From: Aneurinibacillus uraniidurans
Lineage (GTDB): Bacteria > Bacillota > Bacilli > Aneurinibacillales > Aneurinibacillaceae
Direction of reading: 5' to 3'
Assembly (NCBI RefSeq): GCF_028471905.1
Contig: NZ_CP116902.1
Span: 2,454,501 to 2,518,500 of the forward strand
Length of the DNA: 64,000 nt
Of the stretch, positions 1,231 to 64,000 are shown one piece after another. The first letter of the stretch is position 1. Each line of letters begins with the position of its first letter. The translations under genes were made by a program, and so were the position numbers. The notes beneath the pieces were generated by a model, which saw only the letters and a program-made list of their open reading frames with translations, had not been told where the DNA came from and did not search any database.

Positions 1231-1269
1231 GAGGCTGTCTCAAAAGCTAGAATGAGGCAGCCTCTTCTT
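1231..1269 (+). terminator. Rho-independent terminator after the 67-aa gene
   Basis: GAGGCTG and CAGCCTC arms, extended by CTCA/TGAG inside, form a stem at 1231-1264 followed by a T-rich tail (TTCTT). It directly follows the stop at 1223 and directly precedes repeat copy 1. Confidence 0.7.
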
Positions 1270-1525
1270 GGTGAAAGTTTTTCCCAAAGTATGGTGGAGG
1301 AGTGGGATCGGGTGGGGCCTCGTCACTTCGGTATGCTCGCTACGAAGTAGGAACTTTCCGCTTCAGGTGCCAGATGAACTCGCCCACAAAAGAGAACCCA
1401 CGATGTATTTACATCGAAGGATTGTGGGCAAAAACCCGTTCACCTGACCCCTTCCGCTGGGGATCGCATACAGGCGTTCCGTTGCCCCACCCGATCCCAC
1501 TCCTAACACACTTTGAGTAAACACC
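1270..1525 (+). repeat. Long-hairpin repeat, copy 1 (GGTG-type ends)
   Basis: This 256-bp element is one long imperfect hairpin. The outer arms at about 1285-1317 and 1485-1515 pair through GGATCGGGTGGGG and CCCCACCCGATCC. Inner conserved blocks are CCGCTTCAGG, CTCGCCCACAAAAGAGA, GGATTGTGGGCAAAA and CCTTCCGCTGGGG. It is about 90 percent identical by eye to copy 2 (57170-57421). The similarity to copy 2 continues for roughly 80 bp downstream (to about 1600), almost to the mnmM stop codon. The open frames crossing it are by-products of composition. Function and mobilising enzyme are unknown. Confidence 0.85.
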
Positions 1526-1612
1526 ATCAAGTAATATCAAGATGCTGAGCTTCGCTATGCAGGTAAAAATAAGGAAGCAAGTTTCCAAAAACCAGTTGCG
1601 ATCGAATACATT

Positions 1613-2197
1613 CTATTTTTTTTCGATCGCAATAATATAAGGTGGTCGATTGTCCGGGTTGATGTAATCGTAACGCAGAACAAGATATTCTGTGATCGGC
1701 AACGACTGTGCATATGCCTCGATCTGTGCCGCTTCCTCCTCACCACCATCGTGTCCGCGATAAATGACAAGTACAATCATGCCCCCGCGTACAAGCTTCT
1801 CACGTGCAGCCTGTATAGCTGTAAGAGTCGATTCAGCCTGTGTAATCATGGTTTTGTCCGAGCCCGGCAGATAGCCAAGATTAAATACAACAGCCTGTAC
1901 TTCCTCTTTAATATGAACGATCTCCGTATGTGAAGCATGATACAGACGTACTTGCTTCTCAACCCCTGCCGTAGCAAGCCTGTCTGCTGTCGCAGCCACC
2001 GCTTGTTCCTGCACATCATAAGCATATACGAGGCCATTCTCGCCAACCAGTTGAGCTAAAAATAGCGTATCATATCCGTTCCCTGCTGTCGCATCGACAA
2101 CTGTATCGCCTGGTCGCACACGTCCTGCAAGTAGATGATGAGCTACTTCTGTAATACGGGGCAGCCGCTCCCGCCGCTCCTCTATTTTCTGTTTCAT
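1613..2197 (-). CDS. mnmM: Class I SAM-dependent methyltransferase, MnmM (YtqB) family
   Basis: This 194-residue protein has a Rossmann methyltransferase core. SAM motif I is DATAGNGYDT (residues 35-44), followed by FNLGYLPGSD (about 105-114) and YRGHDGGEEE. These fit the YtqB/MnmM family, which methylates the wobble-uridine side chain in tRNA (nm5s2U to mnm5s2U) in bacteria lacking the MnmC methyl domain. Older annotation calls it an rRNA methylase. The length is full for the family. The ATG overlaps the stop of the upstream MBL hydrolase by 4 bp, so the two are translationally coupled. Repeat copy 1 begins just past the 3' end. Confidence 0.78.
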   Translation of the reverse strand: MKQKIEERRERLPRITEVAHHLLAGRVRPGDTVVDATAGNGYDTLFLAQLVGENGLVYAYDVQEQAVAATADRLATAGVEKQVRLYHASHTEIVHIKEEVQAVVFNLGYLPGSDKTMITQAESTLTAIQAAREKLVRGGMIVLVIYRGHDGGEEEAAQIEAYAQSLPITEYLVLRYDYINPDNRPPYIIAIEKK

Positions 2198-18019: not shown

Positions 18020-18070
18020 AAGAAAGAGAAGCGCCAGTATTCGAAGGAAGATTCTAAGATGAACACAGAA

Positions 18071-18103
18071 GGGGCTGTTCCATCGTGCCGATGGAACAGC
18101 CCC
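18071..18103 (-). terminator. Hairpin terminator downstream of rodZ
   Basis: Perfect 15-bp stem GGGGCTGTTCCATCG / CGATGGAACAGCCCC with a 3-base loop. The T tail on the minus strand is weak (TTCTGTGTTC). It lies 110 bp past the rodZ stop; the DNA between holds no supported gene. Confidence 0.65.
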
Positions 18104-18214
18104 GCTTCTATACATCGATAACAGAGCTGCTGTATCAAAAATTTGTGTAAAACGCGGGACCGCCACCAAACTTTGCGGCAACCACATCCCTTTACATCAA
18201 ATTATGGAATAGAT

Positions 18215-19069
18215 CTACTTCCGTACAATCTTAATCTTTTGCGAGCCGCTCTTACGCGCCCCTGATGTGTCAACAGGCTGACCGTTCACAAGCACATCTA
18301 CATCACGAGCACGAACGATGCTAAGCCGTACTTCGCTTCCCTCTTTCACTTCGAAATCCCGGCTTTCTCCTTCGTTTAAAGTAGCTTGATCAAGCATACC
18401 GTTCTCATTGCCTACCGACATCCAGTGCGCTCCTGTTTTTACAGTGACCTTCACTTTAACCGTCTGTGCTCCTGTTAGATCGTAATTGATCGTAGAACCT
18501 GTTTTCGGAGCTGGCGTCAGTTTGCCATCTGCAGCCGGCTGTGGAGCTGGTGCCGGTGTCGCTGGTTTCGGTACGGCTACTTTCTCCGGTGGCGGTACTG
18601 GCATCTTGCTTTTATCAGCGGCCGGCGTACTTGGCTGTGTCTTCTGAGTTGGCGCTTGCGGCGCAGCATTTTGTCCATTCAGCCATTTGATCGCCCCCCC
18701 AATGACTACAAGCACGAGAATCACGAATAAATACAGCAAAACACGCGACATCCATTTACCACTGCCATCGCTGCCTTCCTTACGTGGCTGACGCGACTGA
18801 CGCAGCGGAGTTGGCGCCTCTTCCACCTTAGGCGGGCTTGGCAGCTCAGAACCGTACTCAGAAAGAAGCTGCTCCGAATCAAGCCCAACTGCTTCAGCAT
18901 AATTTTTAATAAACGCACGGGCATAAAAATGTCCCGGGAGCACATCAAAGTTCCCGGCCTCAATCGCCTCGAGATAACGGCGCTGAATTTTCGTTATCTC
19001 TTGAATGTCGGTAAGCGACATTCCTTTATCCTGTCTGGCTTTCTGTAATGCCTGTGTGAGCTCAGACAC
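18215..19069 (-). CDS. rodZ: Cytoskeletal/cell-shape protein RodZ
   Basis: The 284-residue bitopic membrane protein has an N-terminal Cro-like HTH (LTDIQEITKIQRRYLEAIE), a transmembrane helix (VLLYLFVILVLVVIGGAI, about 105-125), a Pro/Ala/Lys-rich linker and a C-terminal beta domain (DUF4115; SEVRLSIVRARDVDVLVNG). It links MreB to the wall-elongation machinery. The start is GTG at 19069; the GTG at 19078 overlaps the AGGAGGTG site. It lies between ymfK and rimO as in other Bacillales. Confidence 0.92.
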   Translation of the reverse strand: MSELTQALQKARQDKGMSLTDIQEITKIQRRYLEAIEAGNFDVLPGHFYARAFIKNYAEAVGLDSEQLLSEYGSELPSPPKVEEAPTPLRQSRQPRKEGSDGSGKWMSRVLLYLFVILVLVVIGGAIKWLNGQNAAPQAPTQKTQPSTPAADKSKMPVPPPEKVAVPKPATPAPAPQPAADGKLTPAPKTGSTINYDLTGAQTVKVKVTVKTGAHWMSVGNENGMLDQATLNEGESRDFEVKEGSEVRLSIVRARDVDVLVNGQPVDTSGARKSGSQKIKIVRK

Positions 19070-40619: not shown

Positions 40620-40880
40620 TTTTGTGGAATGGCGTAACTTTGGTGGGGGAAGGAGAGAAGAGAGAAGCCGTTCGCTCGGGTACGCTTGGCAGGGATGTAT
40701 GGACTGGCCGCTTCAGGAGCCCAGCGAACGTGCCCGCAAAGAAAAGCACAGGATGTTTTTTCATGGAAGGATTGCGGGCAAAGGCTCGTTGGCCGATCTC
40801 CTTCCGCTGGGGGAAAAGCGTACAGACGCTCTCTTGCTTCTCTCTTCTCTCCCTCCCAACAATGTTTCGATTCACAAAAA
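40620..40880 (+). repeat. Long-hairpin repeat, copy 3 (TTTTGTG-type ends)
   Basis: The 261-bp element has ends TTTTGTGGAAT and ATTCACAAAA. The inner left arm is a 23-base pure-purine tract (40645-40667) pairing with a 21-base pure-pyrimidine tract (40837-40857), for example GGAGAGAAGAGAGAAG with CTTCTCTCTTCTCTCC. The core carries GGTACGCTTGGCAGGGATGT, CCGCTTCAGG, GATTGCGGGCAAAGGCTCGTT, CCTTCCGCTGGGG and GCGTACAGACG. It is nearly identical to copy 6 where they overlap. It forms a convergent pair with copy 4. Open frames in several phases are not coding. Confidence 0.88.
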
Positions 40881-40893
40881 CAAAACTTAGAGT

Positions 40894-40910
40894 GTACGGC
40901 AAAGCCGTAC
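40894..40910. other. Small perfect hairpin in the spacer between copies 3 and 4
   Basis: GTACGGC-AAA-GCCGTAC lies in the 63-bp spacer of the convergent repeat pair. It is symmetric in sequence with no T tail beyond TAAAA on one side, so terminator function is doubtful. Confidence 0.4.
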
Positions 40911-40943
40911 TAAAATCAGTGCTTGATGAGTGACGGATGAACT

Positions 40944-41160: not shown

Positions 41161-41343
41161 GACAGATCGATCCATCCCAGCTCTTCAAATGCAAAAAGGA
41201 GCGGCCTCATTCGCCACAGTATGGCTTTTGAGATCGCTCCGTTGTTATGTATGGCAGATTGATGGGGGGAAGATCAGAAAATGCTAAACATACGCCCCTG
41301 CTGCACGGAGATACTAAAGTCAAGCGCAGGAGGAGGTGAGCGT

Positions 41344-49299: not shown

Positions 49300-50153
49300 T
49301 GTTTGACACCTTCTCCGTATAATTGTTCAATCACTTCTTCTTTGATCGTAAATGTATGCTCGGCTGCCGGAAACGCCCGGGTACGTACTTCATGCGCATA
49401 CTGTGCAATCGCCTGATGTATGATGGCCCCTGCTTCACCGTACCGCTTCACAAACTTCGGCACATGGCCTCCACCATACCCGAGAATATCATGATAAACA
49501 AGCACCTGGCCATCACAACCCACACCCGCTCCAATCCCAATGGTTGGAATAGAGAGCTGCTTCGAAATGAGTGTCGCAAGCTGCTCAGGTACGCATTCCA
49601 TCACAAGTGCGAACACCCCTGCTTCTTCCAACGCTTTCGCATCGTCAAGTAATTTTTGGGCAGCTTCTGGTGTTTTGCCCTGTACTTTATAGCCGCCAAG
49701 CTGATGAACCGATTGTGGCGTTAATCCAATATGACCAACAACCGGGATACCTGCCTGTGTACAGCGGCGAATGAGTGGTGCAAGCTCTGCACCGCCTTCA
49801 ATTTTAACGGCTTTCGCCAGACCTTCCTGCATGATGCGGCCCGCATTGCGCAGCGTCTCTTCTATCGTGCCGTGGTATGTCAAAAACGGGAGATCCGTAA
49901 CAACAAATGCCCGACTAGCCCCACGGGTAACCGCTTTCGTATGATGAATCATGTCATCAAGTGTAACAGGAATCGTCGAGTCATAGCCGAGGACGACCAT
50001 TCCAAGCGAGTCACCCACTAGAATCATATCTACCCCCGCTTCTTCTGCTATCTTCGCGGACGGATAGTCGTACGCTGTCAGCATAACGATCTTCTCACCA
50101 TTCTTTTTTTGTTCTTTCAGTGATGCCGTTGTTATAGGCTTTGTGCTTGCCAT
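49296..50153 (-). CDS. panB: 3-methyl-2-oxobutanoate hydroxymethyltransferase
   Basis: The 285-residue TIM-barrel enzyme makes ketopantoate from 2-oxoisovalerate and methylene-THF. Conserved blocks are [39 protein letters not shown] and [32 protein letters not shown] precedes the ATG. It is the first gene of panBCD and is preceded by the birA terminator. Confidence 0.97.
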
Positions 50154-50239: not shown

Positions 50240-50434
50240 ATCATATCCACATTCGTCATGGGCATGCTTGTCCTCTGTCTCGGTCCTTATCGGCTCAGAG
50301 CAGATTTGCATTACGTATTTATAAATGATTCCAAAAATAAAAAAAGGCATGCCTGGTGCCGTTCATATGATACAGCCCTGACATCCCCATTATAAAACAA
50401 CTTCAAAATAAACCGCAATGCTTTTGCGTTCAAC

Positions 50435-57169: not shown

Positions 57170-57421
57170 GGTGGTTTCTCCAAAGTGTGGTGGAGGAGCG
57201 GGATCGGGTGGGACCTCGTCACTTTGGTACGCTCGCTAAGGAGTAAGAGCTGTCCGCTCCAGGTGCTAGGTAAACTCGCCCACAAAAGAGAGCCCACGAT
57301 GTATTCGCATCGAAGTATTGTGGGCAAAAGCCCGTTCACCTAGCCCCTTCCGCTGGGGATCGCGTACAGGTGTTCCGTTGCCCCACCCGATCCCGCTCCT
57401 AACACGCTTTGGATAAACACC
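57170..57421 (+). repeat. Long-hairpin repeat, copy 2 (GGTG-type ends)
   Basis: The 252-bp element has outer arms of about 40 bp, GGTGGTTTCTCCAAAGTGTG opposite CACGCTTTGGATAAACACC, continuing as GGATCGGGTGGG / CCCACCCGATCC. The core blocks are those of copy 1. The homology with copy 1 runs on to the right through ATCAAG(T/C)AATATCAAGATG and AATAAGGAAGC, about to 57520, beyond the hairpin. It starts 10 bp after the YitT stop. Copy 5 follows in inverse orientation after about 105 bp. Confidence 0.88.
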
Positions 57422-57526
57422 ATCAAGCAATATCAAGATGCTTAGCTTTGCTATGTAGGTAAAAAATAAGGAAGCCTTCTCTGGAGAAGTCAGTGGTGAT
57501 CGAGCAAATACGTTCTGGCGTGCATG

Positions 57527-57795
57527 TTTTTTGTAAATCAAAACGTTGTGCGGGGAGTGGGAGAAGGGAGGAGCAAGAGAGTGCCTGTACGCGCCTACTC
57601 AGCGGAGGGAGAACGGTGAACGAGCTTTTGCCCGCAATCCTTCACTGAATCAACATCGTAGGCTCTTCTTTGCGGGCACGTTCGCCTTTCTTCCGAAGCG
57701 GACAGTCATCGCTTCCCTGCAAACGCGTACGGAAACGAACGGCTCCTCCCTTCTCCTACTCCCTCACCACTACACGTTGTCGATATCACAAAAAG
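57527..57795 (-). repeat. Long-hairpin repeat, copy 5 (reverse orientation)
   Basis: Read on the minus strand, the ends are TTTTTGTGATAT and TGATTTACAAAAAA, and the arms GGAGAAGGGAGGAGCC / GGCTCCTCCCTTCTCC pair over a purine/pyrimidine tract. Core blocks: CCGTACGCG, GTCCGCTTCGG, GTGCCCGCAAAGAAGAGC, GGATTGCGGGCAAAAGCTCG, CCTCCGCTGAG and GCGCGTACAGGC. It abuts the 3' end of the ECF41 sigma gene (stop at 57808). Confidence 0.85.
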
Positions 57796-63820: not shown

Positions 63821-64000
63821 TTTTTGTGGAATGACGTAACTTTGGTGGGGAAGGGGGAGAAGAGAGAAGCCGTTCGCTCGGGTACGCTTGGCAGGGATGT
63901 ATGAGCTGTCCGCTCCAGGAACCCGGCGAACGTGCCCGCAAAGAAAAGCACAGGATGTTTTTTCATCGAAGGATTGCGGGCAAAGGCTCGTTCGCCGATC
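63821..64000 (+). repeat. Long-hairpin repeat, copy 6 (cut by window end)
   Basis: Starts TTTTTGTGGAATG and continues with a purine arm GGGGGAGAAGAGAGAAG, then GGGTACGCTTGGCAGGGATG, CCGCTCCAGG, GTGCCCGCAAAGAAAAG, GATTGCGGGCAAAGGCTCGT. Nearly identical to copy 3 over its 180 visible bases, with matched changes in an inner stem (GGCGAACG / CGTTCGCC here). The right half lies beyond 64000. Confidence 0.85.

What the first reader, a model, noticed from the sequence alone, without database searches (positions are those of the whole stretch)
57170..57795. Repeats occur as convergent pairs
Copy 2 (+) and copy 5 (-) are 105 bp apart; copy 3 (+) and copy 4 (-) are 63 bp apart. In both pairs the left member is plus and the right minus, but the members come from different sequence subtypes. 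Copy 1 alone has the conserved right flank of copy 2 yet no partner. Two independent same-polarity pairs are unlikely by chance and suggest that pairing is part of insertion or function, for example target preference for another copy or a two-hairpin transposon.
Basis: seen in the sequence. Interest (0 to 1): 0.7.

Follow-up and report, generated by a model that had tools for sequence, protein, structure and literature searches.

The report
Twin-hairpin repeat element in Aneurinibacillus
The paired repeats are two halves of one non-coding element of about 620 bases: two long DNA hairpins facing each other across a fixed gap. It lies at about 50 gene ends in this bacterial genome and behaves like an oversized relative, in design only, of the small twin-palindrome parasites known from other bacteria.

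Summary
The own genome (3.85 Mb, genus Aneurinibacillus) has 53 element loci in the DNA examined. All 34 adjacent A/B neighbour pairs are convergent, usually 96-109 bp apart (a second subtype 30-68 bp). In sister species G005, 43 of 44 pairs are convergent. Copy 6 does have a minus-strand partner, truncated, about 150 bp past the window's right edge.

The unit is a composite: hairpin A (~260 bp), conserved spacer (~100 bp), inverted hairpin B (~260 bp). It is often bracketed by inward-pointing intrinsic terminators of one family (T). A and B distances co-vary across loci (Mantel r 0.64 and 0.87), so A-spacer-B is inherited as one unit. The pairs are therefore not independent events, and several singles are deletion derivatives joined at short direct repeats. 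Stems show compensatory changes in 23 of 37 consensus pairs. Elements sit at gene 3' ends. At several sites the element-free sister has an unrelated terminator hairpin instead. Other Aneurinibacillus species carry single hairpins.

Best reading: a non-autonomous dispersed element that spread as a unit at terminators and works like a giant REPIN, but is not a REPIN. The mobilising enzyme was not found. Function beyond self-spread is not shown.

The parts
57172..57428 (+). Hairpin A (copy 2) of the composite; folds on itself, RNA MFE -133.3 kcal/mol, z -8.6
   Evidence: profile hit; fold; up to 91% identical to other A copies
57429..57527 (+). Conserved spacer between hairpins A and B
   Evidence: alignment of 50 spacers from two genomes, mean majority fraction 0.85
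57528..57791 (-). Hairpin B (copy 5), inverted relative to A; RNA MFE -118.7, z -6.7
   Evidence: profile hit; fold
40622..40880 (+). Hairpin B (copy 3), short-gap subtype; this composite lies on the minus strand
   Evidence: profile hit; fold z -6.0
40881..40922 (-). Short spacer (42 bp) of the second composite
   Evidence: borders; similar short gaps of 30-68 bp at four other loci of this genome
40923..41168 (-). Hairpin A (copy 4), short-gap subtype
   Evidence: profile hit, 189 bits; groups with other subtype-2 A arms
41198..41240 (-). Flanking intrinsic terminator of the T type, pointing at the element (GGAGCGATCTCAAAAGCC...GGCCGCTCC then T run)
   Evidence: terminator scan; T-family orientation rule
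1231..1264 (+). Left T terminator of copy 1 (GAGGCTGTCTCAAAAGCTAGAATGAGGCAGCCTC), pointing at the element
   Evidence: sequence; pattern hit; sister species has an unrelated hairpin here
1276..1531 (+). Hairpin A (copy 1), unpaired
   Evidence: profile hit
1532..1614 (+). Spacer remnant of copy 1 (end approximate); B lost
   Evidence: spacer match up to about ATACATTCT, then unrelated sequence
63824..64000 (+). Hairpin B (copy 6), cut by the window end; continues to window-equivalent 64082, truncated A partner at 64152-64248
   Evidence: locus L032

Best explanation
The pairs are one non-autonomous, non-coding dispersed element of about 620 bp. Hairpin A and an inverted hairpin B face each other across a roughly 100-bp spacer, and the unit is often bracketed by two terminators of one family (T) whose T runs point inward. 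SHOWN: the polarity and spacing are constant, the three parts are inherited together, and several singles are deletion products. SHOWN: elements sit at gene 3' ends, and two closely related genomes differ in occupancy. INFERRED: the whole unit was copied to new sites, landing at or next to intrinsic terminators and taking over termination with its own T hairpins, so that insertion costs the host little. INFERRED: the hairpin ends are what a host or trans-acting enzyme recognises as folded single strands or cruciforms, as REPIN doublets are thought to be by RAYTs. INFERRED: the composite arose once in the lineage of this species and its sister from a single-hairpin ancestor of the kind still found in A. 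aneurinilyticus and other relatives. It then decays by deletion of the palindromes between short repeats and sometimes leaves only a T scar.
For: 34/34 and 43/44 adjacent pairs convergent, modal gap 100-104 bp. A-A and B-B distance matrices correlate across loci: r 0.64 (4 of 2000 permutations) and 0.87 (0 of 2000); main subtype alone r 0.45 (0 of 2000) and 0.33 (22 of 2000). B arms of both gap subtypes fall in one supported clade. Spacer conserved in 50 copies. Compensatory changes in 23 of 37 consensus pairs. T hairpins at the left always plus (22/22; 32/32) and at the right always minus (20/20; 27/27). Convergent contexts 25/52 and 32/59 against 5/30 in a window control; divergent only 3/52 and 6/59. 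Empty orthologous sites with an unrelated terminator hairpin, whereas most non-element terminators of the window stay alignable between the species, identity about 0.7-1.0. B lost between ACGTTGT repeats at several loci and A internally lost between CCGCTCC repeats at two. Single hairpins without a detected partner in G003, G004 and G006; G004 corresponds to A. aneurinilyticus ATCC 12856.
Against: No mobilising gene was found: the only Y1 transposase in this genome is an IS605-type tnpA/tnpB pair with no A/B sequence within 1.5 kb, and no reverse transcriptase was found in either genome. No consistent target-site duplication was seen at the element or T borders (by eye). The closest main-subtype A arms within a genome still differ by 7-8%, so there is no sign of very recent spread. 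Some 'empty' sites hold a solo T or a residual B end and look like losses, not pre-insertion states. No T was detected on either side at 24 of 53 and 26 of 62 loci, so whether T belongs to the mobile unit is uncertain.
Confidence: 0.72

Rival explanations
1. A and B are two separate mobile hairpins, each with a preference for inserting opposite an existing copy.
For: Single A and single B loci exist, and relatives carry only single hairpins.
Against: Several singles keep the spacer and the ends of the deleted partner; A and B distances are correlated across loci; several sites are a pair in one species and a single in the other; a spacer constant to within a few bp in most pairs would need very precise targeting.
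Confidence: 0.05
2. The elements are functional bidirectional terminators, insulators or structured RNAs kept by selection at gene 3' ends, with dispersal a side effect.
For: Very stable hairpins, compensatory changes, strong 3'-end bias, flanking terminators, many sites shared between two species whose flanks differ by about 10%.
Against: Frequent loss of one or both hairpins at orthologous sites; no sigma-70-like promoter at the examined locus; no Rfam match; external transcription should already stop at T; paired stems may also be kept by palindrome self-correction at DNA level.
Confidence: 0.2
3. A classical MITE: an internal-deletion derivative of a DDE insertion sequence with T hairpins (GAGGCTGTCTCAAAAG) as terminal inverted repeats.
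For: T hairpins form outer inverted repeats around the composite; non-coding, multicopy.
Against: No target-site duplication seen; no plus/minus T pair at IS length stands out among the 86 T-like hits, only composites of about 700 bp; the ORFs between distant A/B copies look like ordinary chromosomal genes; T undetected at nearly half the loci.
Confidence: 0.12

Closest known systems
REPINs (REP doublets forming hairpins; Bertels and Rainey 2011, PMC3116915)
   Same: Two palindromic units in inverted orientation with a spacer; the doublet is the replicative unit; singlets are decayed remnants; extragenic; non-autonomous (paper text; here).
   Different: REP palindromes are 20-40 bp (PMC3733652 abstract); here each arm is a hairpin of about 260 bp and the unit about 620 bp. 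No RAYT gene was found linked to it. Flanking terminators are an added feature.
MITEs and composite small repeats (e.g. BOX and RUP of Streptococcus pneumoniae, PMC3049150)
   Same: Short, non-coding, multicopy intergenic repeats with inverted-repeat structure.
   Different: Each terminal arm is itself a long foldback; no target duplication and no parent IS with matching ends found.
Group IIC introns (target preference only; PMC10190682 abstract describes a structured DNA target)
   Same: Location at structured DNA; insertion next to intrinsic terminator stems is from general knowledge of group IIC introns.
   Different: No reverse transcriptase in either genome, no intron RNA match; a composite of palindromes.

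Membership tests
REPIN / REP-RAYT | Two inverted palindromic units forming the replicative unit | tested here: met
   34/34 and 43/44 convergent pairs; correlated A and B divergence
REPIN / REP-RAYT | Short (20-40 bp) REP palindromes tagged GTAG or CGTC | tested here: not met
   Arms are hairpins of about 260 bp; no GTAG/CGTC tag stands out at the aligned arm borders
REPIN / REP-RAYT | Cognate RAYT (Y1) gene in the genome, flanked by the repeat | tested here: not met
   Single Y1 in this genome is an IS605-type tnpA/tnpB pair; no A or B match in its flanks
MITE of a DDE insertion sequence | Terminal inverted repeats shared with a full-length IS | tested here: inconclusive
   Plus/minus T pairs among pattern hits are composites of about 700 bp, but parents outside these genomes or with diverged ends are not excluded
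MITE of a DDE insertion sequence | Target-site duplication of fixed length | tested here: not met
   No consistent duplication in six G000-occupied and several G005-occupied sites, judged by eye
Rfam structured RNA family | Match to a curated covariance model | tested here: not met
   Whole window: only pan motif; element itself: nothing significant
Group II intron / retroelement | Reverse transcriptase available in the genome | tested here: not met
   No PF00078 match in G000 or G005
Intrinsic (rho-independent) terminator (T parts only) | G+C-rich hairpin followed by a T run | tested here: met
   Sequences; termination activity itself not testable with these tools

The most novel reading that the evidence does not exclude
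The composite spreads without a dedicated transposase: terminator hairpins or the long palindromes are cut or stall replication, and repair copies a T-A-spacer-B-T block from elsewhere, replacing the local terminator hairpin. This would be a DNA-structure-driven element that swaps host terminators for its own.
Probability: 0.1. Interest if true: 0.8.

Novelty: new variant of a known kind. Interest (0 to 1): 0.52.

Why it matters
It shows the doublet-of-palindromes design, known from 20-40 bp REP sequences, at about ten times the size, in a Gram-positive genus, with neighbouring terminators of one family and no detectable RAYT. Two collinear sister genomes with paired, collapsed, scarred and empty states at the same sites make insertion and decay of such elements directly readable, and make testable whether hairpin recognition or terminator targeting drives their spread.

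Tried and rejected
(1) A coding parent element between distant B and A copies (5.6-7.1 kb intervals): the ORFs look like ordinary chromosomal genes. (2) The IS200/IS605 transposase as mobiliser: no element sequence near the Y1 genes. (3) Reverse transcriptase: none. (4) Plasmid, phage or viral-contig carriers: none. (5) Exact-pattern scans of genome contigs: first pattern nothing, relaxed pattern 3 hits, one in A. aneurinilyticus, the other two not followed and in line with my estimate of about 2 by chance. (6) A strict terminator pattern was wrongly written and found nothing; replaced by a shorter one. (7) Strand bias of mismatches as a sign of RNA function: A-C versus G-T 344:274 in A and 344:232 in B; too weak, and the cells are not independent. 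(8) A first alignment used a wrong strand assumption for loci; corrected. (9) The long insert in one G005 copy (L149) looks like an unrelated transposon fragment in the spacer.

Full report
WHAT WAS CHECKED. The window is bases 2454501-2518500 of a single-contig genome of 3,853,322 bp. A and B are homologous when B is reverse-complemented.

PAIRING. Profile models of A and B scanned over the fetched DNA (about 590 kb of this genome, 486 kb of sister genome G005) give 53 and 62 loci. Adjacent A/B neighbours are convergent in 34 of 34 and 43 of 44 cases. Most gaps between full pairs are 96-109 bp; a second group has 30-73 bp. Copy 6 has its minus-strand partner just beyond the window, truncated. 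In folding of the whole pair as DNA, A pairs with itself and B with itself, not with each other. The fetched DNA was chosen around elements, so these counts are not a full-genome density; the A and B searches covered the whole genome but scored only the 40 best first-look candidates each, so a few diverged copies may be missing.

ONE UNIT. The spacer is conserved across 50 copies. Pairwise distances of A and B arms correlate across loci (Mantel r 0.64, 4 of 2000 permutations; G005 0.87, 0 of 2000; within the main subtype 0.45 and 0.33). In the tree, B arms of both gap subtypes form one supported clade, and the single hairpins of other species form another (many inner forks are weak). The simplest reading is that the composite formed once and was copied as a whole. 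The two pairs in the window are therefore not independent pairings; the case rests on constancy and co-inheritance.

SINGLES. Loci 415937, 1607653 and 3068073, and G005 2974321, keep A, the spacer and both outer ends of B, joined at ACGTTGT, a 7-bp repeat present at both B ends. Two A copies lost the inner part between CCGCTCC repeats. At orthologous sites one species can have the full pair and the other a single or collapsed copy, e.g. 1491956, 1578288, 1585439, 3276231. Copy 1 lies at a site where G005 has no element. Not every single was traced to a deletion.

FLANKS AND TARGETS. A terminator family T (GAGGCTGTCTCAAAAGCTG...CAGCCTC plus T run) lies next to many elements: left always plus, right always minus, in both genomes. 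T also occurs alone, and several solo T in this genome sit exactly where G005 has an element. Elements lie at gene 3' ends: convergent 25/52 and 32/59, divergent 3/52 and 6/59, against 5 convergent of 30 gaps in a window control with simple ORF calls. At G000-occupied sites 655210, 741162, 1607653, 1664299, 2455776 and 3003355, G005 has an unrelated terminator hairpin; the converse is seen at 1582473 and 3148407 of G005. At non-element terminators of the window the hairpins mostly stay alignable between the two species. This suggests, but does not prove, that arrival of the element displaced the local terminator. At 1332639, 1543108 and 3430814 of G005 the element-free G000 site looks like a loss or scar. 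No consistent target duplication was seen.

STRUCTURE. Each arm is far more stable than shuffles (z -8.6, -6.0, -6.7). In an alignment of 29 arms including another species, 23 of 37 predicted pairs have changes on both sides that keep the pair. This shows that pairing is maintained. It does not tell RNA function from DNA-level maintenance. No sigma-70-like promoter was found at the locus examined, and Rfam gives nothing.

DISTRIBUTION. Among 60 relatives, matches were found in four further genomes of the genus (G003, G004, G005, G006) and one weak match in another genus. The flanks of L065 (G004) and L213 are the same, and L213 is A. aneurinilyticus ATCC 12856, which places the genus. G003, G004 and G006 show single hairpins; no T was seen in the flanks read. 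The models were built on the pair-bearing lineage and could miss diverged partners. No hit in plasmids, phages or viral contigs.

MECHANISM. Nothing found identifies a mobiliser. Architecture, doublet as unit and singlets as decay products match the REPIN picture (PMC3116915); size, terminators and absence of a linked RAYT do not. I therefore say it works like a REPIN-type doublet but do not file it as one. A literature search found no paper on such repeats in Aneurinibacillus in the open library, which does not cover most subscription journals.

Noticed in passing
window 50271-50379 (-): Rfam pan motif (RF01749), 50.9 bits, upstream of the minus-strand genes whose first start is near 50153; presumably an ordinary pantothenate-gene leader.
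   Followed up: no
L181:16814-17418 (G005) versus window about 18030-18260: In G005 two diverged hairpins (A-like plus, A-like minus) flank a terminator that is conserved in both species; this genome seems to keep only collapsed ends. Possibly an older composite type.
   Followed up: partly
G000 C1:1615294 versus G005 C1:2072294; G000 3278765 versus G005 3817844: Orthologous sites carry the element in opposite orientation, or different subtypes right after the same host terminator: inversion between inverted arms or repeated insertion at one terminator.
   Followed up: partly
L149:1810-2670 (G005): About 870 bp inserted in the spacer of one composite, with transposase-like ORF fragments; identity judged by eye, no family search run.
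   Followed up: partly
Solo T hairpins, e.g. G000 C1:2903571, 2299972, 1152939, 2673013: Solo terminators of the T family at places where G005 has the element; possible scars that would let past occupancy be mapped.
   Followed up: partly
G006 loci L064, L069, L073, L084, L090: Single hairpins, several with an extended outer stem (CAATATCAAAGAATGTGCTTGAC / GTCAAGCACAGAGTTTGATGTAGACCC) and no T terminators seen; a clean set for studying the presumed ancestral unit.
   Followed up: partly
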